From NCBI GenBank assembly GCA_026415675.1, contig JAOAGQ010000008.1:1-64000 (forward strand): 64,000 bases of DNA. Direction: 5' to 3'. Source of the stretch: Syntrophorhabdaceae bacterium (GTDB taxonomy: Bacteria; Desulfobacterota; Syntrophorhabdia; Syntrophorhabdales; Syntrophorhabdaceae). Below the pieces are notes generated by a model. It saw only the letters and a program-made list of their open reading frames with translations. It was not told where the DNA came from and ran no database searches. A program made the translations under genes and the position numbers. Below, piece after piece: positions 2,550 through 18,515 of the stretch; position 1 is the first letter of the stretch; the number at the start of each line of letters is the position of its first letter.

Positions 2550-2990
2550 ATGTTTGAAGGAAGATATGCCTGCACGTTGGACGATAAAAACAGGGTGAGC
2601 ATCCCTGCTAAGTTCAGAGAGGTGCTCTCCGCCAATTACGACATGACCTTAAAACTCACAAACCTCGACGGGTGTATCGCCGCATATCCCTCAAGGGAAT
2701 GGCAGGCGATAAAGGAAAAGATATCGAACTTCGGGGCCATGAGAAAAGAGGCGAGGGCCTTTTTGAGGTATTACTATTCGAGCGTTACAGAATGTCAGAT
2801 AGACAGACTCGGCAGGATACTCATCCCCCAGACACTGAAGACCGATGCAGACATAAAAAAGAATGTAATGATTGTAGGTATAGACAAAAAGATAGAGATA
2901 TGGGCACTGGAAAGGTGGGAAGACCTGGTTAAAAGGGCAACGGCCGACCCTGATCAGGTGGCAGACATAGTCTCTGAACTTGGTCTTTGA
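2550..2990 (+). CDS. mraZ: Transcriptional regulator MraZ
   Basis: A 146-residue protein at the head of the dcw cluster. It contains two SpoVT-AbrB-like beta-barrel repeats: MFEGRYACTLDDKNRVSIP at 1-19 and a second with QIDRLGRILIPQ near residues 81-92. MraZ binds TGGGN repeats upstream of its own gene and represses the cluster; such repeats are visible at 2522-2546. The length is normal. The start ATG is preceded by GGTGGG, which is also the last operator box. The stop TGA overlaps the rsmH start. Confidence 0.96.
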   Translation: MFEGRYACTLDDKNRVSIPAKFREVLSANYDMTLKLTNLDGCIAAYPSREWQAIKEKISNFGAMRKEARAFLRYYYSSVTECQIDRLGRILIPQTLKTDADIKKNVMIVGIDKKIEIWALERWEDLVKRATADPDQVADIVSELGL

Positions 2991-3856
2991 TGGATGTTAT
3001 CCATACACCTGTTCTCCTTGAGGAAGTAACAGCGAACATCATAAAAGACGATACAGAATTGCTTGTCGATGCAACAGTGGGAGGTGCAGGCCATTCTTAT
3101 CACATACTTGAGAAACACAGGGACATAAGACTCATAGGTATTGATATGGATGAGGTGGCCCTTGAGGTGGCCAGGGAAAAATTATCAGGATTTAAGGAGA
3201 GGGTAAGGCTTATAAGGGGAAATTTCAAGGATTTAAAGGGGCTACTTCAAGGACACGGGATATACGGTTTTGATGCGATAATATTCGACCTTGGTATATC
3301 TACCTTTCAGATTATGGGAAGAAGGGGATTCAGTTTCCACGATGATGTGTTTATGGACATGAGGATGGACATAAGAGAGAAGACAACAGGGTACGATGTG
3401 GTAAATTTTTACGATTTTAAAAGGCTTCTCTCGATCATAAGGGACTATGGAGAGGAGAGGAAGGCCCATAAGATAGCAAAGGCGATTGTGGAGGCAAGAA
3501 AGATAAAACCCATAAATACCTCATATGAACTGGGTCACATCGTATCGAGGGTAAAGAGAAAAACGGGGAAAATCCACCCTGCGACAAAAACATTTCAGGC
3601 CATAAGGATAGAGGTAAACAGGGAACTGGAAAACTTAAGAGAAGGCCTTCTCGGGGCTATAGAGATGCTGAACAAAGGGGGTAGGATAGGGGTAATCTCC
3701 TTTCACTCCCTGGAGGACAGAATCGTAAAGAATACTTTTAAAGACTCCCCATCCCTGGTTGTGATCACAAAAAAGCCTATCACACCAGGGAGGGAGGAAA
3801 TTGCGAGGAATCCCAATGCGAGGAGCGCAAAACTCAGAGTGGCGGAAAAACTATAG
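2990..3856 (+). CDS. rsmH: 16S rRNA (cytosine(1402)-N(4))-methyltransferase RsmH
   Basis: A 288-residue SAM-dependent methyltransferase (MraW) that modifies C1402 in the decoding site of 16S rRNA. It starts with HTPVLLEEV; the SAM-binding loop is DATVGGAGHS near residues 26-35, and FDLGIST and VISFHSLEDR are diagnostic. The ATG at 2990 overlaps the mraZ stop (TGATG), which implies translational coupling; a TTG three bases earlier is an unlikely alternative. It is the second gene of the cluster as usual. Confidence 0.95.
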   Translation: MDVIHTPVLLEEVTANIIKDDTELLVDATVGGAGHSYHILEKHRDIRLIGIDMDEVALEVAREKLSGFKERVRLIRGNFKDLKGLLQGHGIYGFDAIIFDLGISTFQIMGRRGFSFHDDVFMDMRMDIREKTTGYDVVNFYDFKRLLSIIRDYGEERKAHKIAKAIVEARKIKPINTSYELGHIVSRVKRKTGKIHPATKTFQAIRIEVNRELENLREGLLGAIEMLNKGGRIGVISFHSLEDRIVKNTFKDSPSLVVITKKPITPGREEIARNPNARSAKLRVAEKL

Positions 3857-3866
3857 AGGGAACGGA

Positions 3867-4172
3867 ATGGAAAGGATCGCCGTCTCGGTGAGAAGAAGTA
3901 AGAGGGAGCATGAGTATGGATTCTCCATCCTGATGGTTTTTCTTGCCCTTTTTTTATATCTCATCACCTCGTTCTATCTTAAAGGGGCATACAATGAGGC
4001 GAGGGAAAGATACATGGAGGCGTTAAAGGCACAGAAAATCCTTACAGAGATGAACGATGAGTTGAGAACGAAAAAATCGGTGATAACACAGAGGAGGTTT
4101 CTCGAGTTACAGGCCGGGGAGCGCCTCGGTTTGAGACATGCGAAAGAGGAAGAGGTTCTTGTATCGAGATGA
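3867..4172 (+). CDS. ftsL: Cell division protein FtsL (FtsL/FtsB-like)
   Basis: A 101-residue bitopic membrane protein between rsmH and the ftsI slot, the usual place of ftsL. A basic N terminus (VSVRRSKREHEYG) is followed by one transmembrane segment (SILMVFLALFLYLITSFYL) and a coiled-coil-like outer region with heptads, ending in LELQAGERLGLRHAKEEEV, typical of FtsL. FtsL forms a complex with FtsB and FtsQ that activates FtsWI. ATG 3867 has a GAGGGAACGG ribosome site; an upstream in-frame ATG at 3801 lies inside rsmH and is less likely. The gene overlaps the next by ATGA. Confidence 0.8.
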   Translation: MERIAVSVRRSKREHEYGFSILMVFLALFLYLITSFYLKGAYNEARERYMEALKAQKILTEMNDELRTKKSVITQRRFLELQAGERLGLRHAKEEEVLVSR

Positions 4173-5068
4173 ACAAAAGGGCTAACAGGAAGGCCTTTTT
4201 TGTCTGTATATCGATTTTTTTGGTTTACCTTTGGGTGGGGATGGGGCTTTATGAACGGTCTATATGGCAGAGGAACGCCTACGAGGGAAAGATAGGGGCA
4301 TCAAATATGGGTATGAATCTTAAAAGCGATATAAAAAAAGACGAAAAGAAAGAGATAGAACCTCTTACAACCAAAGTGGAGAAAGAGGGGGCTCGAGAGA
4401 GAAAACTGGTACGGAAAGAAGGGGGAGCAGAAATGGTAGAACCTTCTTATCTGATTTCCGTACCCTTTGTTCTTTTCGCTATAAAACAGAATCTACTCGA
4501 GAAGGATAGTCTTATACCCTCGAAAAAGGATGGCCCCAATAATATTTTAAGCTGGAAGAGGCCCCTCGATATTCTAAGAGAGAGAGACGATGAAGGTCTT
4601 ATAAACATCTCAAAGACAATAGGCTTAAAGAATATGGTTCGCCTTCTGAGAGAGGAAGGAGTGGAGGTGGAGGAGGGACTTTCCCCTGGAGAGATCATGT
4701 TGGGAAGGGGTTATGTGATCGAGAGGAATAAACTTCTGGGGCTATACAATAAATATGTAGGGGATGAGTACAGAAGCCTCTTTCCATATTCCTCAGGGAA
4801 TATGACGATAAGCAAAAAAGGAGGGGGATTCGAACTTGTCTCCTTAAAGGTTTTCCCCCAAGATGAAGGGGAACACAGGATAGACGGTTGGTATATGCCT
4901 GATGTGAGGGGGCTTCCATTGAAGACCGCCCTTGAGAGGCTCACCAATTATACGGATAACATAAGGATATACGGGTTCGGTATTGTGCAGGATCAGTTCC
5001 CAAAACCACAGGATAGGGTCTTACCCGATACGGTATGTATATTATACGGGAAAGGGGAAGGGAGATGA
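4169..5068 (+). CDS. Degenerate FtsI-like protein with PASTA domain (pseudo-transpeptidase)
   Basis: This gene occupies the ftsI/pbpB slot between ftsL and murE but encodes only 299 residues instead of about 550-650. Visible parts: cytoplasmic basic N terminus; transmembrane anchor around 9-26; a charged Lys/Glu-rich linker (40-90) where the pedestal domain should be; a segment 91-200 that aligns by eye with a transpeptidase core; and a PASTA domain from about 243 (MPDVRGLPLKTALERL) to the end. The catalytic motifs are gone: the EPGSTFK region reads E91-P-S-Y94-L-I-S97, so the active Ser is Tyr and the Lys is Ser. The SSN motif aligns to R139-D-D141. No clear KTG is seen, only KKGGG at 216-220. 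LGRGYVIERNKLLGLYNKY near 178 matches the conserved GxG..TPLQLA.AY helix. Overlap with ftsL (ATGA) and the uninterrupted frame argue that it is expressed. It may be a structural partner of the ftsW-slot protein. The alignment is manual. Confidence 0.7.
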   Translation: MNKRANRKAFFVCISIFLVYLWVGMGLYERSIWQRNAYEGKIGASNMGMNLKSDIKKDEKKEIEPLTTKVEKEGARERKLVRKEGGAEMVEPSYLISVPFVLFAIKQNLLEKDSLIPSKKDGPNNILSWKRPLDILRERDDEGLINISKTIGLKNMVRLLREEGVEVEEGLSPGEIMLGRGYVIERNKLLGLYNKYVGDEYRSLFPYSSGNMTISKKGGGFELVSLKVFPQDEGEHRIDGWYMPDVRGLPLKTALERLTNYTDNIRIYGFGIVQDQFPKPQDRVLPDTVCILYGKGEGR

Positions 5069-6557: not shown

Positions 6558-7897
6558 AGGAGATTGTAAAGGCAGTAAATGGGATAGTTATAACCGTGGA
6601 ACAGGAAACATTTACCGGGATCTCAACCGATTCAAGGACCATAAAGGAAGGAGAGTTGTTCATACCTTTGAAGGGGGAGAGGTTTGACGGTCACGATTAT
6701 CTGGAAGGGGCCTACGCAAGGTCAAGAGGGGGGGTATTATGTGAAAAAAGCCAGGCCAAAAAGGCAGAGGGTATAAAGGGAACGGTAGTCCTTGTGGAGG
6801 ATACCCTCGATGCCCTCCTTGCCCTCGCAAAAAAGAGGAGAGAGAAAATAGATACCCCCTGTGTCGGTATAACAGGGAGTAACGGGAAGACAACGACGAA
6901 AGAGCTCCTTGTGAATATGACAAAGAGGGCTTTTTTCGTTCACTTCAACGAAAAGAACTACAACAATTTAATCGGGGTACCAAAGAGTATCCTCTCAATG
7001 GAAAAAAGGCCGGATCTATCGATTTTTGAGCTGGGGACAAATAGTAGAGGGGAGATAAGACGCCTCGCGGAGGTGGTAAAACCGGATGTGTCGCTTATCA
7101 CAAACATCAATCCTTCCCACCTCGAGGGCTTATCCGATATAAAAGGTATCCTTGAAGAGAAACTCGACCTGTTTAGGTTTACCGTGGAGGGAGGCCTGAT
7201 CCTTATAAATATGGACGATCCCCACCTCTCTTCGGTCGGTTATGATGACAGGCATAAAGCGGCAACATACAGTATGGAAAGACCTGCCGATTTTACTTTA
7301 GCCGTTGAAGAACATCTCGGATGGAATGGCTATGTACTCTCCTTAACCCATAAACATAAAAAGATTAAGGCAAAGACCTCCCTTCTCGGTAAACATAACC
7401 TTTATAACATCCTCGCCGCTTATGCCATAGCCTGTTCTGTTGAGACGCCCCAGCATGAGATAGAAGAAGGCATAGAGACCTTTGAGCCCTATGATATGAG
7501 GTTCAGGCCTGTTAAAACGAAAAGAGGTTACCTCCTGGTAGATGATACATACAACGCAAACCCCTCCTCTGTAAAATGGGCAGTAAAGACCATAACGGAG
7601 CTTCCCTGTCAAGGGAAAAGGATTGTCGTTCTTGGGGACATGAAAGAACTCGGGAGCCACACAGGGTACTACCACAGGGAAGTTATAGATTTTTTAAAAG
7701 GTTCAGGAATTGATGGGGTCTTTTTAACAGGGGAAGAGATGGGTAAGGTGTACGATAAAGGGAAGGGAATGCTCTATTTTGAGGATAAAAAAGAACTGAT
7801 AAGACACGTTCTGGAAAAAATCGAGGATGGAGATGTGGTCCTTGTGAAGGGTTCGAGGGCAGAACGGATGGATGAAATAGTGGAGGCCCTTAAATAG
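6545..7897 (+). CDS. murF: UDP-N-acetylmuramoyl-tripeptide--D-alanyl-D-alanine ligase MurF
   Basis: A 450-residue Mur ligase that adds D-Ala-D-Ala to the UDP-MurNAc-tripeptide. P-loop [13 protein letters not shown] is near residue 108. [11 protein letters not shown] and [12 protein letters not shown] are MurF signatures. It overlaps the end of murE by 13 bases and sits one base before mraY, consistent with a coupled operon. Length and motifs are normal. Confidence 0.96.
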
Positions 7898-7898
7898 C

Positions 7899-8975
7899 AT
7901 GTTATACCATCTCCTATACCCCTTACACAGCACGATCTTCGCCTTCAACGTCTTCAGGTACATCACCTTCAGAACCGTCCTTTCGATTCTCACAGCGCTC
8001 ATCATAAGTTTCTTTCTCACCCCTTACATGATTAGAAAATTCCATGAATGGAAGATTAAAAGCGACAAAAGGGAGGACGTGCCGGAGAGGCACGGGGAAA
8101 AGAGGGGTACCCCTACAATGGGGGGTTTTGTGATTCTTCTATCGACCATCATCCCCACCCTCCTATGGGCGGATTTGAGGAACTACTGGATCTGGATTGT
8201 TGTATTTACCCTCGTTTCATTCGGAGGTATAGGCTTTATCGACGATATCAAAAAGCTGAAAGGTAAAAACGGCAAAGGCATATCGGGGAAGACAAAGATG
8301 CTCCTCCAGATAGGTTTTGCCGCTATCATAAGCATCCTCATATACTCCCAGCAGGGCTTTATCACCTCCCTCATCGTCCCCTTTTTCAAGAATATAAGGC
8401 CTGACTTAAACGGCATATACATCATCCTCTCCGTAATCATCCTTGTCGGCGCATCAAATGGGGTGAATCTCACAGACGGCCTCGATGGTCTCGCCATTGG
8501 GCCTGTCCTTACGGTATGTTCCACATTCATGCTCTTTGCGTATCTTGTGGGGAATACGATATTTGCCCAGTATTTACAGATTTTTTATGTGAAAGGGGCA
8601 GGGGAACTCACCATACTATGCGGGGCTATGCTTGGAGCAGGCATAGGCTTTCTCTGGTACAACGCCTATCCTGCAGAGCTTTTCATGGGGGACACGGGCT
8701 CTCTCTCCCTCGGTGCGGGGCTTGCCTCCATAGCGATCATCATAAAACAGGAGATACTCCTTATGATTGCTGGCGGTATCTTCGTTATAGAAACATTGTC
8801 CGTGATCATCCAGGTCCTCTCCTTTAAATGGAGGGGAAAGAGGGTCTTTAAGATGGCCCCGATACACCACCATTTCGAGTTGAAGGGGTGGAATGAGGGG
8901 AAGATAGTGGTGCGATTCTGGATCATCTCTATCATCCTTGCCCTCTTTGCAATCAGTACGTTGAAGTTGAGGTGA
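7899..8975 (+). CDS. mraY: Phospho-N-acetylmuramoyl-pentapeptide-transferase MraY
   Basis: A 358-residue polytopic membrane enzyme that transfers phospho-MurNAc-pentapeptide to undecaprenyl phosphate, forming lipid I. Family signatures are [20 protein letters not shown] near residue 57, [17 protein letters not shown] (catalytic Asp region), [11 protein letters not shown] and the [13 protein letters not shown] histidine loop. About ten transmembrane helices. It lies between murF and murD as usual. Confidence 0.96.
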
Positions 8976-8982
8976 CGAAAGA

Positions 8983-10308
8983 ATGGGTATTCCTGAGCAT
9001 ATACTTATAGTGGGTTTAGGGGCAACAGGGATTGCTGTAGCAAAATTCCTCAACAGTTTGGGGAAGAAGATCGCAATCACCGATGAAAAAAAAGAGGAAG
9101 AGCTAAAACATGCCTTAAAAGAGCTTGAAGGCATTGGGTTTCAGGGCATGTTTGGTGGCCACAGGGAGGAAGACTTCCTCAAATACCCCATGATCATATT
9201 GAGTCCAGGGGTCGATTCCAACCTTCATGTGATAGGGGAGGCAAGAAGGCGGGGTATAAAAGTTGTGGGGGAGATTGAGCTCGCCTCTTGGTTTGTTGAG
9301 GAACCTATCATTGCCATCACGGGGACAAACGGTAAGACAACGGTCACATCCCTTATCGGGGAGATCTTCAAAGAGGCGTATGGGGATGTTTTTGTGGGGG
9401 GAAACATAGGAAACCCCCTTATAAACTACGTGATGGAAAAGGTAAAAAGGCCTTATATCATCCTCGAGATAAGTAGTTTTCAGCTCGAAACCATAGAACA
9501 TTTTCGTCCCGACACCGCGGTACTTCTCAATATCACAGAGGACCATCTCGATAGATACAGGAGTTTTTCCGAGTACGAGGAGGCGAAATATCGGATTTTT
9601 GAGAACCAAAGAGACGATAACTGGGCAGTGATAAACGAGGATATCCCCAGAAAGAGGGATTTGAAAGGGCATACCCTCTTCTTTTCCATGAAAAATACCC
9701 TTAAAGAGGGGGCATTTTACAGTGATGGCTTAATCCATGTGAGGTTAAAAGGGAAAGAGACCGTATATAGAAGAGATTTGTCCCCCCTTATAGGGGTGCA
9801 CAACACAGAGAACATAATGGCGGCCCTCATCGTGTCCCACATATACGATATCCAAAAAGAGGTGATCGAGGAGGTACTAAATAGATTTAAGGGCCTCCCC
9901 CACAGGGTAGAGCCGGTAAGGGAGGTGGGGGGAATCCGTTTCTATAACGATTCAAAGGCCACCAATGTGGATGCCACAAGAAGGGCCCTCCAGAGCATCG
10001 AGGGGAATGTGGTGCTCATCGCAGGGGGAAAGGATAAGATGGGCACATATAAGGTGTTGTCCGATGTTATGGGTAAGGTTAAGGCAATGGTGCTCATAGG
10101 GGAAGCCAAAGAGCGTATATTAAAGGAGATAGGGGGCTTAACGAAAACGTATACGGAAGAGACCCTTGAATCAGCGGTCAATACCGCCTTTAGGTGTGCT
10201 GAAAAGGGTGATATTGTCCTTTTCTCGCCGATGTGCAGTAGCTTTGATATGTTCAGGGACTATAAAGAGAGGGGAAACAGGTTTAAAGAGATCGTGGAGG
10301 GATTATGA
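8983..10308 (+). CDS. murD: UDP-N-acetylmuramoyl-L-alanine--D-glutamate ligase MurD
   Basis: A 441-residue Mur ligase that adds D-Glu to UDP-MurNAc-L-Ala. A Rossmann-like start (ILIVGLGATGIAVAKFL) is followed by ITGTNGKTTVTSL near residue 110, LEISSFQLE, NITEDHLDRY, and FYNDSKATNVDAT near residue 320. Length and motifs are normal. Its stop overlaps the start of the ftsW-slot gene by ATGA. Confidence 0.96.
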   Translation: MGIPEHILIVGLGATGIAVAKFLNSLGKKIAITDEKKEEELKHALKELEGIGFQGMFGGHREEDFLKYPMIILSPGVDSNLHVIGEARRRGIKVVGEIELASWFVEEPIIAITGTNGKTTVTSLIGEIFKEAYGDVFVGGNIGNPLINYVMEKVKRPYIILEISSFQLETIEHFRPDTAVLLNITEDHLDRYRSFSEYEEAKYRIFENQRDDNWAVINEDIPRKRDLKGHTLFFSMKNTLKEGAFYSDGLIHVRLKGKETVYRRDLSPLIGVHNTENIMAALIVSHIYDIQKEVIEEVLNRFKGLPHRVEPVREVGGIRFYNDSKATNVDATRRALQSIEGNVVLIAGGKDKMGTYKVLSDVMGKVKAMVLIGEAKERILKEIGGLTKTYTEETLESAVNTAFRCAEKGDIVLFSPMCSSFDMFRDYKERGNRFKEIVEGL

Positions 10309-11093
10309 GGACCGCGCTCTTTTTGATGCTTGGGGCCATGCTTTTGTACAGCCTCTTCCTAAAGGCGGATATCCCTTCCCTCTTTTTTGTCCTGTTGAGC
10401 GTCGGTATCTCCTACCTTATATACCGTGTCCCTGCAAGATATATCGTGGCGATGAAGTATCCTGTGATCTTTCTCCTCTTAAGTGTAACGGTACTTTTCC
10501 TTATATACCCCCATTTGAAACTCCCGGGCCCGATGGAAGGCTTATTGTTCTTCATCTCTTTCTACAGTGTATCCTATTTTCTCATCACCATAGATGAGAA
10601 GGAGAGGGGTCTATTCAAGGAGGCGACCGCCCTTTCCGTGGTCTTCCTCTGTTCTGCCTTTAATATGTCGATGGTGGGAAAGGCCGTCTTTATATTGCCT
10701 ATAGCCTTTGCCGGTCTTATATTTCTCTTTATCCTTGGGAAAAACAGGCTCCTTGTTGTCCTTGCCTTCCTCAGCTTAGTCGTTACCGGTCTTATGATCA
10801 ATAAAGGGGTGGCCCTCACAAACCCCAAGACCTCTTTGAACGATATGAACAGATACATGGTGCTCACAACTTCTTTTATATTCCTTATGATCGGCTTTGC
10901 GAGTTTTGTGAAAAGTAAGGAAGTTCTAAAAAAATTGAGCTTTTTCGGTTTTTTATATCTTGCGGTAGACATCATAATGACCCTTGCCTTAAAAATCTCT
11001 ATGGGCCTTCTCTATCAGCCCTTCTTGGCCCTTTTTGTACTGACCCCTCTGATCGGTGTCTCCATGAAGAGGGAGAGGGGGGCGGTCAAATGA
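10305..11093 (+). CDS. Degenerate FtsW-like membrane protein (pseudo-SEDS)
   Basis: This gene fills the ftsW slot between murD and murG, overlapping both by four bases, but encodes only 262 residues instead of about 370-400. About ten hydrophobic segments can be placed (near 1-19, 22-42, 46-71, 77-96, 107-124, 124-143, 147-164, 183-201, 209-232 and 234-254), matching the SEDS topology with the loops removed. Conserved SEDS motifs are missing: the QPDLGT region aligns to N120-M-S-M-V-G, and the catalytic HTDFIF..EE motif aligns to T-T-S190-F-I-F, with the Asp replaced by Ser and the EE pair by F-A. The large extracellular loop before it is reduced to about 18 residues (165-182). The terminal SMGLLYQPFLA recalls the TGxPLPFxS segment. 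FtsW normally polymerises septal glycan from lipid II; this protein very likely cannot. An unrelated membrane protein in this slot is the alternative. Confidence 0.6.
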   Translation: MRTALFLMLGAMLLYSLFLKADIPSLFFVLLSVGISYLIYRVPARYIVAMKYPVIFLLLSVTVLFLIYPHLKLPGPMEGLLFFISFYSVSYFLITIDEKERGLFKEATALSVVFLCSAFNMSMVGKAVFILPIAFAGLIFLFILGKNRLLVVLAFLSLVVTGLMINKGVALTNPKTSLNDMNRYMVLTTSFIFLMIGFASFVKSKEVLKKLSFFGFLYLAVDIIMTLALKISMGLLYQPFLALFVLTPLIGVSMKRERGAVK

Positions 11094-12172
11094 AAATCTT
11101 AATCAGCGCAGGGGGCACAGGGGGTCATATCTTCCCAGGGATAGCGGTAGCTGAGGCCTTTTCCTCGATGAAAGGTAGCTATGAGGTATTCTTTGTGGGA
11201 ACGAGGCAGGGGATGGAAAGCACTATCATCCCTTCATACGGGTTCAGGCTCCTCTTTGTTGAGGCACGCCAGTTTCTCGGCAGAAGCGTTTTGTACAGGC
11301 TTGCCACCCTCCTCTATCTGCTAAAAGGTATCTACACCTGCAAACGTTTGATAGGTAAAGAGAAACCCGATGCGATCCTCGGTATGGGGGGCTTTACCTC
11401 TGTCCCTGTTGTCTTTGCAGGGGTGATATCCGGTATCCCTGTCTTTCTCCATGAGCAGAACGTAGAACCGGGTCTTGCAAATAAAGTGCTCTCACGGTAT
11501 GCGAAAATGGTCTTTGTGAGCTTCCCCGAATCCGCCCGATTCCTTAAGGGAAAAAATATACATCATACGGGAAACCCTTTAAGGAAGGGGATAAGGAGAG
11601 GAAGGGAGGAGAAAAGAGGGGATGGACTTAGTATTTTCATATTCGGGGGCAGCAGGGGGGCAAAGAGGTTAAACAGTGTAGCGGTGGAAATGTTACCCCT
11701 TCTCGAGGAGAAAGGGGGCATATCCGTATACCACCAGACAGGGAAAGAGGATTTTGAGTGGGTCAAAAACGAATACAGACAGACAAAGATAAACTACGAT
11801 GTCTTTCCCTTTACAGAGAACATGGCAGACTATTATAAAAAATCGGATGTGGTTATATCAAGGGCAGGGGCATCCACCATATTCGAGCTTGCCTATTTTA
11901 AAAAGGCCGCAATCTTAATCCCCTATCCATACTCAGCCGGACAGCACCAATGGAAAAACGCCTCGTATGTGGAGAAAAAAGGGGGAGGGTATGTGATAGG
12001 AAACGATGAGGCCACAGGGGAGAGGGTTTTCAGGGCAATAAGACATCTCATAGAGAACCCTGAACTCATAAAGGAGATGGGACAAAACATGGGCAATCTG
12101 TATGTGGATGGCGCGGAAGAGAAGATCGCAACTTACATCATAGATTACGTGGGAGAGGGGGGTAGGGTTTGA
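11090..12172 (+). CDS. murG: UDP-N-acetylglucosamine--undecaprenyl-PP-MurNAc-pentapeptide transferase MurG
   Basis: A 360-residue GT28 glycosyltransferase that converts lipid I to lipid II on the inner face of the membrane. The N-terminal G-loop SAGGTGGHIFPGIA is at 6-19; ILGMGGFTSVP and FLHEQNVEPGLANK follow. The C-terminal donor site includes GGSRGAKRLN and SRAGASTIFEL. Length is normal. It overlaps the ftsW-slot gene by ATGA. Confidence 0.96.
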   Translation: MKILISAGGTGGHIFPGIAVAEAFSSMKGSYEVFFVGTRQGMESTIIPSYGFRLLFVEARQFLGRSVLYRLATLLYLLKGIYTCKRLIGKEKPDAILGMGGFTSVPVVFAGVISGIPVFLHEQNVEPGLANKVLSRYAKMVFVSFPESARFLKGKNIHHTGNPLRKGIRRGREEKRGDGLSIFIFGGSRGAKRLNSVAVEMLPLLEEKGGISVYHQTGKEDFEWVKNEYRQTKINYDVFPFTENMADYYKKSDVVISRAGASTIFELAYFKKAAILIPYPYSAGQHQWKNASYVEKKGGGYVIGNDEATGERVFRAIRHLIENPELIKEMGQNMGNLYVDGAEEKIATYIIDYVGEGGRV

Positions 12173-14502: not shown

Positions 14503-15402
14503 ATGAGGGATAAAAAAATAGGTATACTTATGGGCGGCATATCTTCAGAGAGGGATATCTCTATCAAAAGTGGAACCGCCGTCTATAACAGCCTTCAAAG
14601 GCAGGGATATAATGCGAAAGGTATCGATGTGGGTAGGGATGTTTGCGATACCCTTTTAAGAGAGAAGATAGATATCGCCTTCATAGCCTTACATGGGAGA
14701 TGGGGTGAGGACGGTACGGTCCAGGGGCTTCTCGAACTGATGGCCATACCTTATACAGGCTCGGGGATCGTAGGCTCCGCCATCTCTATGGACAAGATCA
14801 TAATGAAAAGGATGTTAAATGCTATTGGTGTGCCCACTCCGGAATATGAGGTGTCAACAGGTATTGGGGATATTAAACTCCCCCTGCCTTTTGTTGTAAA
14901 GCCTCCCTGCGAAGGGTCAACGATAGGGATATCTATCGTCAAAAGTAAAGAAGAGGTAGAAAAGGCAATCGAGACCGCCTTTCAGTACGACAGAAAGGTG
15001 CTCATAGAAAGATATATAGAAGGGGATGAAATAACGGTTGGGATCGTAAACGGTAAGATTCTCCCTGTGATACAGGTGGTACCGAAAAAGGGTTTCTATG
15101 ATTTTGAGGCCAAGTACACAAAGGGCATGACCGAATACGTGATCCCCGCGAGGATAGATGAAAAGGTTGATAGAGAGGCCAAAGAACTGGCCATCGCCAT
15201 ATATGAGGCATTTCAACTCTCCGGTTGTGTGAGGATAGATATGCTCGTTGAGAGGACGGAAGGGATACCCCTTGTGATAGATATAAACACATCCCCGGGC
15301 ATGACGGAGACCTCCCTTGTGCCCAAGGCATGGGCCCATCTCGGCGGTACTTTCGATGAACTCGTTGTAGAGATATTAAAGGGGGCATCGCTTAAGATAT
15401 GA
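14503..15402 (+). CDS. ddl: D-alanine--D-alanine ligase
   Basis: A 299-residue ATP-grasp enzyme that makes D-Ala-D-Ala for MurF. Motifs: LMGGISSERDISIKSG at 9-24, ALHGRWGEDGTVQGLLE near 63, PFVVKPPCEGSTIGI, and the metal-binding DINTSPGMTETSL near the C terminus. The ATG lies 14 bases after murB and the end overlaps ftsQ by four bases. Confidence 0.95.
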   Translation: MRDKKIGILMGGISSERDISIKSGTAVYNSLQRQGYNAKGIDVGRDVCDTLLREKIDIAFIALHGRWGEDGTVQGLLELMAIPYTGSGIVGSAISMDKIIMKRMLNAIGVPTPEYEVSTGIGDIKLPLPFVVKPPCEGSTIGISIVKSKEEVEKAIETAFQYDRKVLIERYIEGDEITVGIVNGKILPVIQVVPKKGFYDFEAKYTKGMTEYVIPARIDEKVDREAKELAIAIYEAFQLSGCVRIDMLVERTEGIPLVIDINTSPGMTETSLVPKAWAHLGGTFDELVVEILKGASLKI

Positions 15403-16100
15403 AAAGGATCATCCACTTTCTCTTCATCATCCCGGTCTGCATCATCTCCATGTTTACCATGATATACATCTTCTCCCAGGAAGAACCCCTGTTCCACATA
15501 AGAAATCTGAAGGTCAACGGGATTCAACAGTTAAAAGAGGCGGAGGTGATAAAGAGGATAAGCCCCTTGCTCGTAGGAAATATATTCAGGCTTGATGCGG
15601 AGAAGGTAAGGGAGGCGATCGTATCCCATCCCTATGTGAAGGACGTGAGGATAAAGAGGGTCTATCCTTTTTCGGTACTTGTAGATGTTGTTGAGAAGAA
15701 ACCATCGGCCCTGTGGGTTGACGGGCATGGCGTCATCAGAATACTCGACGAGGATGGTGAACCTTACAGGGTATTCTCGAAAAAAGAGGGTAAAGGCCTT
15801 ACCATCATTACCGCGGAGAAACAATCCGAGGCAAAGAGGATATATATAGAGATGATGGACTGGATCAAGGATGGGGTGATAAAAAGGGAGGAGATCTCTC
15901 AGGTTGTCGTAAAGGAAGGGGATGTTATCTTATTTGGAACGGACGATGCCGTTGAGGTGATCCTCGGTAAAGAAGACTTAGAGGCAAGGCTCAAAAGGGC
16001 GAGGGCAGTCCTTGAGGATGCAAAAAAGAGGGGGCTTATGATCAGGTGCATAGATGCACGATTTGAGAAAGGTGCGATTATCGAGGAAAGGAAGGGCTGA
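15399..16100 (+). CDS. ftsQ: Cell division protein FtsQ
   Basis: A 233-residue bitopic protein. A short cytoplasmic tail and a transmembrane segment (IHFLFIIPVCIISMFTMIYIF) are followed by a POTRA domain (HIRNLKVNGIQQLKEAEVI through KRVYPFSVLVDVVEKKPSALW) and the FtsQ beta domain. FtsQ scaffolds FtsLB at the septum and normally controls FtsWI. Its persistence next to altered FtsW/FtsI-slot genes suggests the complex still assembles. It overlaps ddl by ATGA and precedes ftsA by 2 bases. Confidence 0.92.
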   Translation: MKRIIHFLFIIPVCIISMFTMIYIFSQEEPLFHIRNLKVNGIQQLKEAEVIKRISPLLVGNIFRLDAEKVREAIVSHPYVKDVRIKRVYPFSVLVDVVEKKPSALWVDGHGVIRILDEDGEPYRVFSKKEGKGLTIITAEKQSEAKRIYIEMMDWIKDGVIKREEISQVVVKEGDVILFGTDDAVEVILGKEDLEARLKRARAVLEDAKKRGLMIRCIDARFEKGAIIEERKG

Positions 16101-16102
16101 CT

Positions 16103-17350
16103 ATGACAAGGGATGAAGATCTTCTCGTAGGTGTTGATATAGGGACTACAAAAATCTGTGTTGTGGTCGGTAAGGTAGTGGAAAATAACGTGAGTATCAT
16201 AGGCATAGGCTCCCATCCATCCACAGGCTTGAGAAAGGGTGTTGTTGTAAACATGGACAGTACGATCAACTCCATAAAGAAGGCCGTAGAAGATGCAGAG
16301 TTGATGGCAGGGGTGAAGATAGACAGTTGCTATGCTGGCATAGGGGGGGCCCATATAAAGAGCTTTAACAGTAACGGCGTTGTCGCCATAAAGGAGAAGG
16401 AGGTAAGGCCTGACGATATAGCAAGGGCAATAGATGCCGCAAAGGCGATAGCGATCCCTGCGGACAGAGAAATCCTCCACGTGATACCCCAGGAGTTTAT
16501 CATAGATGACCAGGACGGGATAAAAGACCCCATAGGGATTACAGGGGTGAGGCTTGAGGTGAAGGTGCACATCGTAAGCGGAAGCGTATCCTCCGTTCAG
16601 AATATAATAAAATGTTGCCGCCTCGCCGGCCTCAACGTGGATGACATAATTCTCGGTCAGCTTGCCTCATCGGAGGCAGTTTTGAGTCCTGAAGAGAAGG
16701 AGATAGGCGTGGCCCTTGTGGATATGGGAGGGGGAACCTGTGATGTAGCCGTATTTGCAGGGGGTAGTATCAAGTACACATCCGTTTTGCCCTTTGGAGG
16801 CAACAACATAACGAACGATATAGCGATAGGATTGCGGACCCCGCTGGAAGATGCGGAGAAGATAAAGAAAAAGTACGGCTGTGCCCTCTCAAGGATGGTA
16901 GAGGCGAACGAGATGATAGAGGTACCCAGTGTGGGGGGTAGAAAGCCGAGGGCATTAAACAGGAAGACCCTTGCGGATATCGTGGAGCCCAGGGTGGAGG
17001 AGATATGTTCCATGATATACGCCGAGATAAAGAAGTCCGGATACGAAAAGGTCCTTGCCTCGGGAGTGGTTATTACAGGAGGGGGTTCAAACCTTGAAGG
17101 GCTCCCGGAACTCTCGGAGAGCATATTCAACCTTCCTGCCCGCAGGGGTTCGCCCATAGGTGTTACAGGCCTTGTGGATGTGGTGAATAACCCTATCTAT
17201 GCAACGGGGGTAGGGCTAATCCTGTACGGATTTAGACATCAACCGTTGAGAAAAAAGAGAAAACTGATGCAGGGGAAGTCTTTTAAAAGGATATTAAACG
17301 GAAAAGGACTCATCAACAGGATGAGGGAATGGTTTAAAGAAATTTTTTAG
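16103..17350 (+). CDS. ftsA: Cell division protein FtsA
   Basis: A 415-residue actin-like ATPase that tethers FtsZ to the membrane. Phosphate motif GVDIGTTKICVVVG is at 9-22; the 1C domain follows with VKVHIVSGSVSSVQNI, and LVDMGGGTCDVAVF and VITGGGSNLEGLPEL are the other nucleotide motifs. The C terminus MREWFKEIF is an amphipathic membrane-targeting helix. It lies between ftsQ and ftsZ. Confidence 0.96.
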   Translation: MTRDEDLLVGVDIGTTKICVVVGKVVENNVSIIGIGSHPSTGLRKGVVVNMDSTINSIKKAVEDAELMAGVKIDSCYAGIGGAHIKSFNSNGVVAIKEKEVRPDDIARAIDAAKAIAIPADREILHVIPQEFIIDDQDGIKDPIGITGVRLEVKVHIVSGSVSSVQNIIKCCRLAGLNVDDIILGQLASSEAVLSPEEKEIGVALVDMGGGTCDVAVFAGGSIKYTSVLPFGGNNITNDIAIGLRTPLEDAEKIKKKYGCALSRMVEANEMIEVPSVGGRKPRALNRKTLADIVEPRVEEICSMIYAEIKKSGYEKVLASGVVITGGGSNLEGLPELSESIFNLPARRGSPIGVTGLVDVVNNPIYATGVGLILYGFRHQPLRKKRKLMQGKSFKRILNGKGLINRMREWFKEIF

Positions 17351-17360
17351 GAGGTGTTAA

Positions 17361-18515
17361 GTGAGCATGGTATTCTACATGGATGAGGGAAACGGTTTTT
17401 CAGCGAAACTCAAGGTAGTGGGTGTAGGTGGTGGAGGCTGCAACGCTATTAACAATATGGTAAATGCAAACGTCCCGGGGGTGGAGTTCATAGCGATCAA
17501 CACGGACGTAAAATCTTTAAACGCCTGTAAGGCCCCGGTAAAGATACAGATAGGGAGTAAACTGACAAGAGGTCTCGGGGCCGGGGCAAACCCTGAAGTA
17601 GGTAAAAAGGCCGCCCTCGAGGATATAGATAAGATTTCAGAGCATCTAAAAGGGGCGGATATGGTCTTTATCACCTGTGGTCTCGGAGGTGGTACCGGAA
17701 CAGGGGCATCCTCTGTGGTGGCCGAGGTATCGAAAGAGCTTGGGGCCCTGACCGTGGCCATTACCACAAAACCTTTTGCCTTTGAAGGAAAAGACAGGAT
17801 GAAGCAGGCTGAATACGGGGTCTCCCAGTTGAAGACAAGGGTCGATTCATTGATCACCATCCCCAATCAGAGGTTGATGTCCATTGGGGGTAAACATATG
17901 ACGATCGTGGAGGCATTCAAGAGGGCGGACGAGGTCCTTTTAAATGCGGTAAGGAGCATATCCGATTTGATCGTAGGTTCAGGTTATGTAATCGTCGATT
18001 TCGCCGATGTAAAGACAATAATGAGCGAGAGGGGTATGGCGATCATGGGGATTGGAGAGGCCTCGGGGGAAAACAGGGCAAGGGATGCGGCACAGAAGGC
18101 CATATCGAGCCCTTTGCTCGAGGATATCTCAATCCACGGGGCACGGGGGGTTCTCATAAATGTCACAGGGAATAGCGATATGAGCCTCCATGAGGTACAT
18201 GAAGCATCAAGCCTGATACAGGAACAGGCCCATGAAGATGCAAAGATCATATGGGGGCTTGTGTACGACGATTCTATGGAGAACTCGATGCGGATCACCG
18301 TGATAGCCACAGGTTTTGAAGAAAAGGCAGCTGTAGAAGAAGACGAAACGGAGGCGATAAAGAGCGGGAGGCTTTTCGAGGCAGGAAGGATGCCCTCTTT
18401 TGTGAATACGAAGGGCTCTCTTGACTATAAGGACATAAAGTCGAAGAGTGATGTGATGGATCTCGATGATGAGCGGTTCTTCATACCGACATACTTGAGA
18501 AAGCAGGCGGATTAA
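17361..18515 (+). CDS. ftsZ: Cell division GTPase FtsZ
   Basis: A 384-residue tubulin-like GTPase that forms the Z ring. Motifs: [13 protein letters not shown] near residue 22, the GTP signature [13 protein letters not shown] near 108, and NADEV-like [10 protein letters not shown] (T7 loop region further on). A short linker ends in the conserved peptide [10 protein letters not shown] that binds FtsA. GTG at 17361 follows AGGAGG (17349-17354) by 6 bases; an ATG at 17367 is possible. It ends the dcw cluster, 15 bases before the convergent lnt. Confidence 0.97.

What the first reader, a model, noticed from the sequence alone, without database searches (positions are those of the whole stretch)
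10305..11093. A minimal ten-helix SEDS-like protein with loops stripped and the catalytic Asp changed to Ser
In the ftsW position, ten hydrophobic segments in 262 residues align by eye with FtsW: QPDLGT becomes NMSMVG, TDFIF..EE becomes TSFIF..FA (Ser190), and the large outer loop shrinks to about 18 residues. This would be the smallest SEDS relative I am aware of.
Basis: partly seen in the sequence, partly recalled or inferred. Interest (0 to 1): 0.75.

Follow-up and report, generated by a model that had tools for sequence, protein, structure and literature searches.

The report
Stripped-down FtsW paired with dead FtsI
In one order of bacteria (Syntrophorhabdales), the two enzymes that normally build the wall at the division site appear to have lost their active sites but been kept as shrunken, conserved proteins, which suggests that the division machinery needs them for something other than catalysis.

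Summary
The ORF is real: 262 aa, overlapping murD and murG in the ftsW slot of a dcw cluster. It is conserved in all 44 Syntrophorhabdales genomes searched and is under purifying selection. No sequence family matches it. AlphaFold (pLDDT 90) gives ten TM helices, and the best PDB matches are FtsW and RodA structures. A cleaned FtsW profile shows weak but above-chance similarity over TM2-TM5. It is best read as a degenerate FtsW.

The "catalytic Asp to Ser190" claim fails. Ser190 is mid-TM8 and not invariant. The loop that carries the Asp is deleted.

The larger find is the partner. The ftsI slot (4169-5068) encodes a 299-aa relic: a TM helix, a truncated transpeptidase fold without SxxK, SxN or KTG, and a PASTA domain. 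The genome's only canonical SEDS-bPBP pair is RodA-PBP2. Two class A PBPs are also present.

In 13 other Desulfobacterota families ftsW is gone altogether and the ftsI-slot protein again lacks all three motifs. On a dcw-gene tree they lie apart from this order, so the catalytic pair was lost at least twice.

Best explanation: a non-catalytic FtsWI scaffold in the divisome, with septal wall made by RodA-PBP2 or class A PBPs. Loss of active sites follows from sequence; the scaffold role is inferred.

The parts
10305..11093 (+). Xw: 262-aa ten-TM degenerate SEDS (FtsW-slot) protein
   Evidence: ORF; family in 44 genomes; AlphaFold pLDDT 90.5, pTM 0.88; Foldseek PDB best matches FtsW/RodA
10662..10679 (+). 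residues 120-125 NMSMVG, TM5-TM6 loop, positional counterpart of QPDLGT (Asn120 38/38, Gly125 33/38)
   Evidence: model topology, column counts
10803..10841 (+). residues 167-179, TM7-TM8 periplasmic loop; in SEDS proteins this is the long ECL4 that carries the catalytic Asp; here reduced to 13 residues
   Evidence: landmark distances in RodA/FtsW
10842..10913 (+).
   Evidence: Ser190 column variable
10968..10970 (+). Asp222 in TM9, invariant in 38/38
4169..5068 (+). Xi: 299-aa degenerate FtsI (ftsI slot): TM helix, linker, truncated transpeptidase fold without SxxK/SxN/KTG, PASTA
4427..4843 (+). Xi residues 87-225: truncated penicillin-binding fold; EPGSTFK reads EPSYLIS, SSN reads RDD
   Evidence: hhalign score 33.0 vs column-shuffles 14.3 +/- 2.7, max 24.1; Foldseek class D beta-lactamases and PBP3/PBP2x
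4886..5065 (+). Xi PASTA domain (residues 240-299)
   Evidence: hhalign to FtsI PASTA E 3.6e-12; Pfam PASTA in 11 of 13 members
3867..4172 (+). ftsL (ATG start at 3867 inside the longer TTG ORF 3801-4172)
   Evidence: sequence, orthologous short TM proteins in the same slot
8983..10308 (+). murD
   Evidence: orthologues in the same slot
11090..12172 (+). murG
15399..18515 (+). ftsQ, ftsA, ftsZ: rest of the divisome present

Best explanation
Xw (10305-11093) is the in-place descendant of FtsW, and Xi (4169-5068) the in-place descendant of FtsI. Both have lost their active sites. Xw keeps the ten-helix SEDS membrane body but has lost the periplasmic loops that form the glycosyltransferase site (ECL2 and ECL4 cut out, QPDLGT and SYGG motifs gone). 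Xi keeps the membrane anchor, a truncated transpeptidase fold without nucleophile, SxN or KTG, and the PASTA domain. They persist because the pair still has a non-catalytic job: probably a membrane-embedded scaffold that ties FtsQ/FtsL/FtsA/FtsZ to the septal wall, with PASTA as the wall-binding part, and recruits or licenses the enzymes that do the synthesis, RodA-PBP2 and/or the two class A PBPs. Shown: gene positions, loss of motifs, SEDS-like predicted fold, conservation, absence of any other SEDS or class B PBP except RodA-PBP2 in this genome. Inferred: that Xw and Xi bind each other, the scaffold role, and which enzyme makes the septum.
For: Slot and synteny identical to FtsI/FtsW-bearing Desulfobacterota. 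Fold: and Foldseek. Weak FtsW-specific profile match over TM2-TM5 (RodA alone not significant). Xi-FtsI profile match E 1e-9, with the transpeptidase part alone above all 100 shuffles, and a penicillin-binding fold. Motif loss in Xi. One SEDS match per order genome, with three exceptions that show a second match; RodA beside PBP2 in the mre operon of this genome; two class A PBPs. Xw and Xi present in all 44 order genomes; dN/dS 0.09-0.25. Association: FtsW-positive lineages read have intact FtsI motifs (6/6); FtsW-less lineages read have none (14/14 clusters). Literature: dominant-negative FtsW variants blocked in wall synthesis still localise and bind partners (PMC8765783); S. aureus PBP1 PASTA domains are needed for septum progression and bind wall (PMC9426605); C. 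difficile divides with a class A PBP and no canonical FtsW/FtsI (PMC10693644).
Against: Pfam, NCBIfam and PDB sequence searches give no SEDS match for Xw. Foldseek E-values are weak (best 9e-3). The profile match covers only the N-terminal half; C-terminal segments are not above controls. No interaction, localisation or activity data exist. Invariant Asn120 and Asp222 could mean some retained chemistry.
Confidence: 0.72

Rival explanations
1. Xw is an unrelated ten-TM protein that took over the ftsW slot (non-orthologous displacement); its resemblance to SEDS proteins is convergent packing of ten helices.
For: No Pfam/NCBIfam/PDB sequence match; C-terminal half shows no profile signal; Foldseek E-values weak.
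Against: The top Foldseek matches are almost all SEDS, TM-score 0.53-0.60 against at most 0.30 for all other listed matches; FtsW profile score 33.4 against a maximum of 22.9 in local shuffles, collinear from TM2 to TM5; the partner slot holds a clear FtsI relic.
Confidence: 0.13
2. Xw is still an enzyme or lipid II handler: a minimal glycosyltransferase or lipid transporter with a relocated site built around invariant Asn120 and Asp222.
For: Asn120, Asp222, Lys105 and Tyr52 are invariant in 38 sequences; purifying selection.
Against: ECL2 and ECL4, which carry E. coli FtsW K133-Q147, R243, R246 and D297 (PMC8765783), are missing; the partner transpeptidase lacks its motifs; RodA remains as an intact SEDS.
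Confidence: 0.1
3. Xw and Xi are functionless remnants held only by operon context on the way to full loss, as in the lineages where murD abuts murG.
For: Full ftsW loss occurs in other lineages of the phylum; Xi shrinks to 248-254 aa in family f3.
Against: Intact frames across the order apart from scattered, possibly assembly-related breaks, dN/dS 0.09-0.25, invariant residues and conserved length.
Confidence: 0.05

Closest known systems
FtsW (SEDS glycosyltransferase, PF01098) and FtsI/PBP3 (class B PBP)
   Same: Same dcw slots, ten-TM SEDS fold for Xw; TM anchor, transpeptidase-fold core and PASTA for Xi; FtsL/Q/A/Z present.
   Different: Xw lacks ECL2, ECL4 with the catalytic Asp, QPDLGT and SYGG, and is about 100 residues shorter; Xi lacks SxxK, SxN, KTG and the N-terminal pedestal.
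Clostridioides difficile non-canonical divisome (PMC10693644)
   Same: No canonical FtsW/FtsI; RodA-PBP2 and a class A PBP remain.
   Different: There the dcw-encoded SpoVE/SpoVD are active sporulation enzymes; here the dcw-encoded pair has lost its active sites.
Desulfobulbaceae and cable bacteria lacking ftsW (PMC7873302)
   Same: ftsW reported absent in the same phylum.
   Different: That paper treats FtsI as present and active; the FtsW-less Desulfobacterota lineages read here have FtsI without catalytic motifs. Syntrophorhabdales keeps an FtsW relic.
Staphylococcus aureus PBP1 (PMC9426605)
   Same: Non-catalytic divisome role of a class B PBP through PASTA domains.
   Different: S. aureus PBP1 is an intact enzyme whose activity also matters.

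Membership tests
SEDS (FtsW/RodA/SpoVE, PF01098) | Match to the family profile | tested here: not met
   No Pfam or NCBIfam SEDS match for Xw or 28 relatives at E up to 10
SEDS (FtsW/RodA/SpoVE, PF01098) | Profile-profile similarity to FtsW | tested here: inconclusive
   Score 33.4, E 9e-4, probability 23%, 0/30 local shuffles reach it, TM2-TM5 only; RodA alone not significant; an earlier profile with mis-framed rows gave 23.2
SEDS (FtsW/RodA/SpoVE, PF01098) | Ten-TM SEDS fold, N and C termini inside | tested here: met
   AlphaFold model, Foldseek matches FtsW/RodA with TM-scores 0.53-0.60; positive residues on the expected inner loops
SEDS (FtsW/RodA/SpoVE, PF01098) | Long ECL4 with the catalytic Asp (TDFIF), QPDLGT, SYGG | tested here: not met
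   Loop 167-179 only 13 aa; motifs absent
SEDS (FtsW/RodA/SpoVE, PF01098) | Lipid II polymerase activity | not testable with these tools
   Needs biochemistry
FtsI / class B PBP | Transpeptidase fold | tested here: met
   Truncated fold: Foldseek OXA class D and PBP3/PBP2x, E about 1e-4; profile score 33.0 vs shuffle maximum 24.1
FtsI / class B PBP | SxxK, SxN, KTG motifs | tested here: not met
   EPSYLIS, RDD and no KTG; motifs absent in all 13 members
FtsI / class B PBP | C-terminal PASTA as in FtsI of this phylum | tested here: met
   E 3.6e-12; Pfam PASTA in 11/13

The most novel reading that the evidence does not exclude
The septal synthase FtsWI was turned into a catalytically dead pair at least twice in Desulfobacterota. 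In Syntrophorhabdales both partners survive as a mini-SEDS plus mini-pseudo-FtsI; in a separate, larger group of families FtsW is gone and only pseudo-FtsI remains. These bacteria divide with FtsZ/FtsA/FtsQ but make septal wall with RodA-PBP2 and/or class A PBPs directed by the dead scaffold.
Probability: 0.6. Interest if true: 0.85.

Novelty: new variant of a known kind. Interest (0 to 1): 0.73.

Why it matters
FtsWI is described as universally essential for septal wall synthesis. An order that has kept shrunken, active-site-free versions of both partners, under purifying selection, would separate the structural role of FtsWI from its catalysis by natural experiment, and would show which part of each protein the divisome needs. 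It also predicts that RodA-PBP2 or class A PBPs can serve division in this phylum. Syntrophorhabdus aromaticivorans, a named species of the order with a strain on record, would be a place to test it.

Tried and rejected
Ser190 as the mutated catalytic residue: rejected, it sits mid-TM8, is variable, and the spacing to the TM9/TM10 landmarks is wrong. Pfam, NCBIfam and PDB sequence searches for Xw: nothing. The first profile comparison used an FtsW alignment with three mis-framed rows and missed the signal; it was cleaned and repeated with controls. Segment-wise profile tests of TM5-TM6, TM7-TM8 and TM8-TM10 gave nothing convincing above controls. Search of viral structures: no match. A canonical second SEDS or FtsI elsewhere in the genome: none. 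Uniqueness of FtsW loss to this order: rejected, other families lost it too.

Full report
Observation. The window holds a complete dcw cluster: mraZ, mraW, ftsL, [ftsI slot], murE, murF, mraY, murD, [ftsW slot], murG, murC, murB, ddl, ftsQ, ftsA, ftsZ. The finding is the ftsW-slot ORF, 10305-11093, 262 aa, called Xw here. It overlaps murD and murG by four bases each. The finding does not mention the ftsI-slot ORF, 4169-5068, 299 aa, called Xi here.

Distribution. Xw has no Pfam or NCBIfam match, even at E 10. It has homologues in the window's genome and all 43 order-level relatives. None of the 285 other genomes of the phylum has a convincing one; the only non-order hit is a 50-residue match at E 3e-4. 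Public records of the same proteins are named Syntrophorhabdaceae, Syntrophorhabdales, Syntrophus or Deltaproteobacteria MAGs, so I take the order to be Syntrophorhabdales. Xi is found in the same 44 genomes; outside the order its profile matches little more than the PASTA region of FtsI. Close pairs of Xw have dN/dS 0.09-0.25. Invariant residues in 38 sequences include Tyr52, Pro69, Lys105, Asn120 and Asp222.

What Xw is. AlphaFold with 29 sequences gives pLDDT 90.5 and pTM 0.88, with ten TM helices: 2-17, 23-41, 51-67, 75-94, 103-123, 127-144, 147-166, 180-203, 207-228, 239-253. Positive residues fall mostly on the loops expected to be cytoplasmic in SEDS topology (sequence). Foldseek against the PDB returns 8p1u FtsW, 6bas RodA, 8tj3 RodA, 8bh1 FtsW, 6pl6 and 6pl5 RodA with probability 0.87-1.00 and TM-score 0.53-0.60. 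No other listed match exceeds 0.30. E-values are weak (best 9e-3), which I put down to the missing loops. Profile comparison to a cleaned FtsW alignment scores 33.4 (E 9e-4). Local-shuffle controls average 15.7 with a maximum of 22.9, MraY scores 18.4, reversed controls 17.6-19.5, and RodA alone 18.9. The aligned stretch runs collinearly from TM2 into the loop before TM5, and its largest gap falls on ECL2. C-terminal segments are not convincingly above controls. Together with position this favours descent from FtsW, but sequence alone would not prove it.

The Ser190 claim. In SEDS proteins TDFIF lies in ECL4 before TM8, and in every RodA/FtsW read here with both motifs it is 79 residues before SYGG. 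In Xw, Ser190 is ten residues into TM8, its column varies (S, A, P, T, C, G), and the whole TM7-TM8 loop is 13 residues. The Asp-bearing loop has been removed. E. coli FtsW active-site positions lie in ECL2 (K133-Q147), ECL3 (P196-G199), ECL4 (R243, R246, D297) and ECL5 (G371, G381) (PMC8765783). Xw lacks the first and third regions and has none of the motifs of the others.

The partner. Xi aligns to FtsI with E 1e-9. The PASTA part alone gives 3.6e-12. The transpeptidase part alone scores 33.0 against column shuffles of 14.3 +/- 2.7, maximum 24.1. Its model (pLDDT 75.5) matches class D beta-lactamases and the PBP3 and PBP2x transpeptidase domains at E about 1e-4. At the SxxK position it reads EPSYLIS for EPGSTFK, at SxN it reads RDD, and there is no KTG; none of the 13 members has these motifs. 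It is a truncated transpeptidase without an active site.

What is left to make the septum. The genome (99% complete) has one canonical SEDS, RodA, beside PBP2 in an mreB-mreC-mreD-mrdA-rodA operon, and two class A PBPs. Order genomes show a single PF01098 match except three with a second one: G009 and G018 (an extra divergent SEDS-PBP pair) and G039 (a 92-residue C-terminal fragment).

Context in the phylum. Most other families have two SEDS genes; many have one. In 26 of 29 genomes with at most one full SEDS match that were read at murG, no SEDS lies between murD and murG. In 14 such dcw clusters, from 13 families, the ftsI-slot protein lacks SxxK, SxN and KTG, and some are shortened to 340-453 aa. 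Six FtsW-type lineages have intact motifs. Where the remaining SEDS was inspected in four FtsW-less families (f20, f31, f78, f94) it is RodA beside PBP2. A concatenated dcw-gene tree, midpoint rooted, puts Syntrophorhabdales apart from the FtsW-less group, with FtsWI-bearing lineages between them. The FtsW-less group has support 84 without f20 and 38 with it. So the catalytic pair was lost at least twice, if losses are not reversed. Absence of ftsW from Desulfobulbaceae was reported before (PMC7873302). I found no report of a dead FtsI or of Xw in the library searched.

Mechanism. The most likely role is a non-catalytic FtsWI scaffold. Dominant-negative FtsW variants that block wall synthesis still reach the septum and bind FtsI (PMC8765783). 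PASTA domains of S. aureus PBP1 are needed for septum progression and bind wall (PMC9426605). C. difficile shows a class A PBP can be the septal synthase without canonical FtsW/FtsI (PMC10693644). Which enzyme does it here is not known.

Limits. No interaction or activity data; the models are predictions; the sequence evidence for Xw as a SEDS member is partial; the phylum survey read 20 FtsI slots outside the order, not all; the paper library is open-access only.

Noticed in passing
L131-L144 (dcw clusters of families f17, f20, f30, f31, f56, f62, f65, f66, f78, f80, f85, f94, f102): ftsW absent (murD next to murG) and the ftsI-slot protein without SxxK, SxN or KTG; a second, separate case of catalytic FtsWI loss in the phylum.
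   Followed up: partly
L084 and L085 (genomes G018, G009): Two genomes of the window's family carry an extra divergent SEDS (458-470 aa) next to a class B PBP with PBP_dimer_2 and transpeptidase domains; possibly acquired.
   Followed up: partly
L131 (G070), 7152-8171: The ftsI-slot protein is only 340 aa and no longer matches an FtsI profile built here; the most eroded case seen.
   Followed up: no
L070-L072 (family f3), Xi genes: Xi is shortest here (248-254 aa) and the old EPGSTFK region is no longer recognisable.
   Followed up: no
G052, G085, G134, G157: Genomes with no SEDS match at all; may be assembly gaps.
   Followed up: no
L073 (G012), 2879-3600: The Xw homologue of G012 is split by an ambiguous stretch (X residues) and a frame change; probably an assembly fault.
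   Followed up: no
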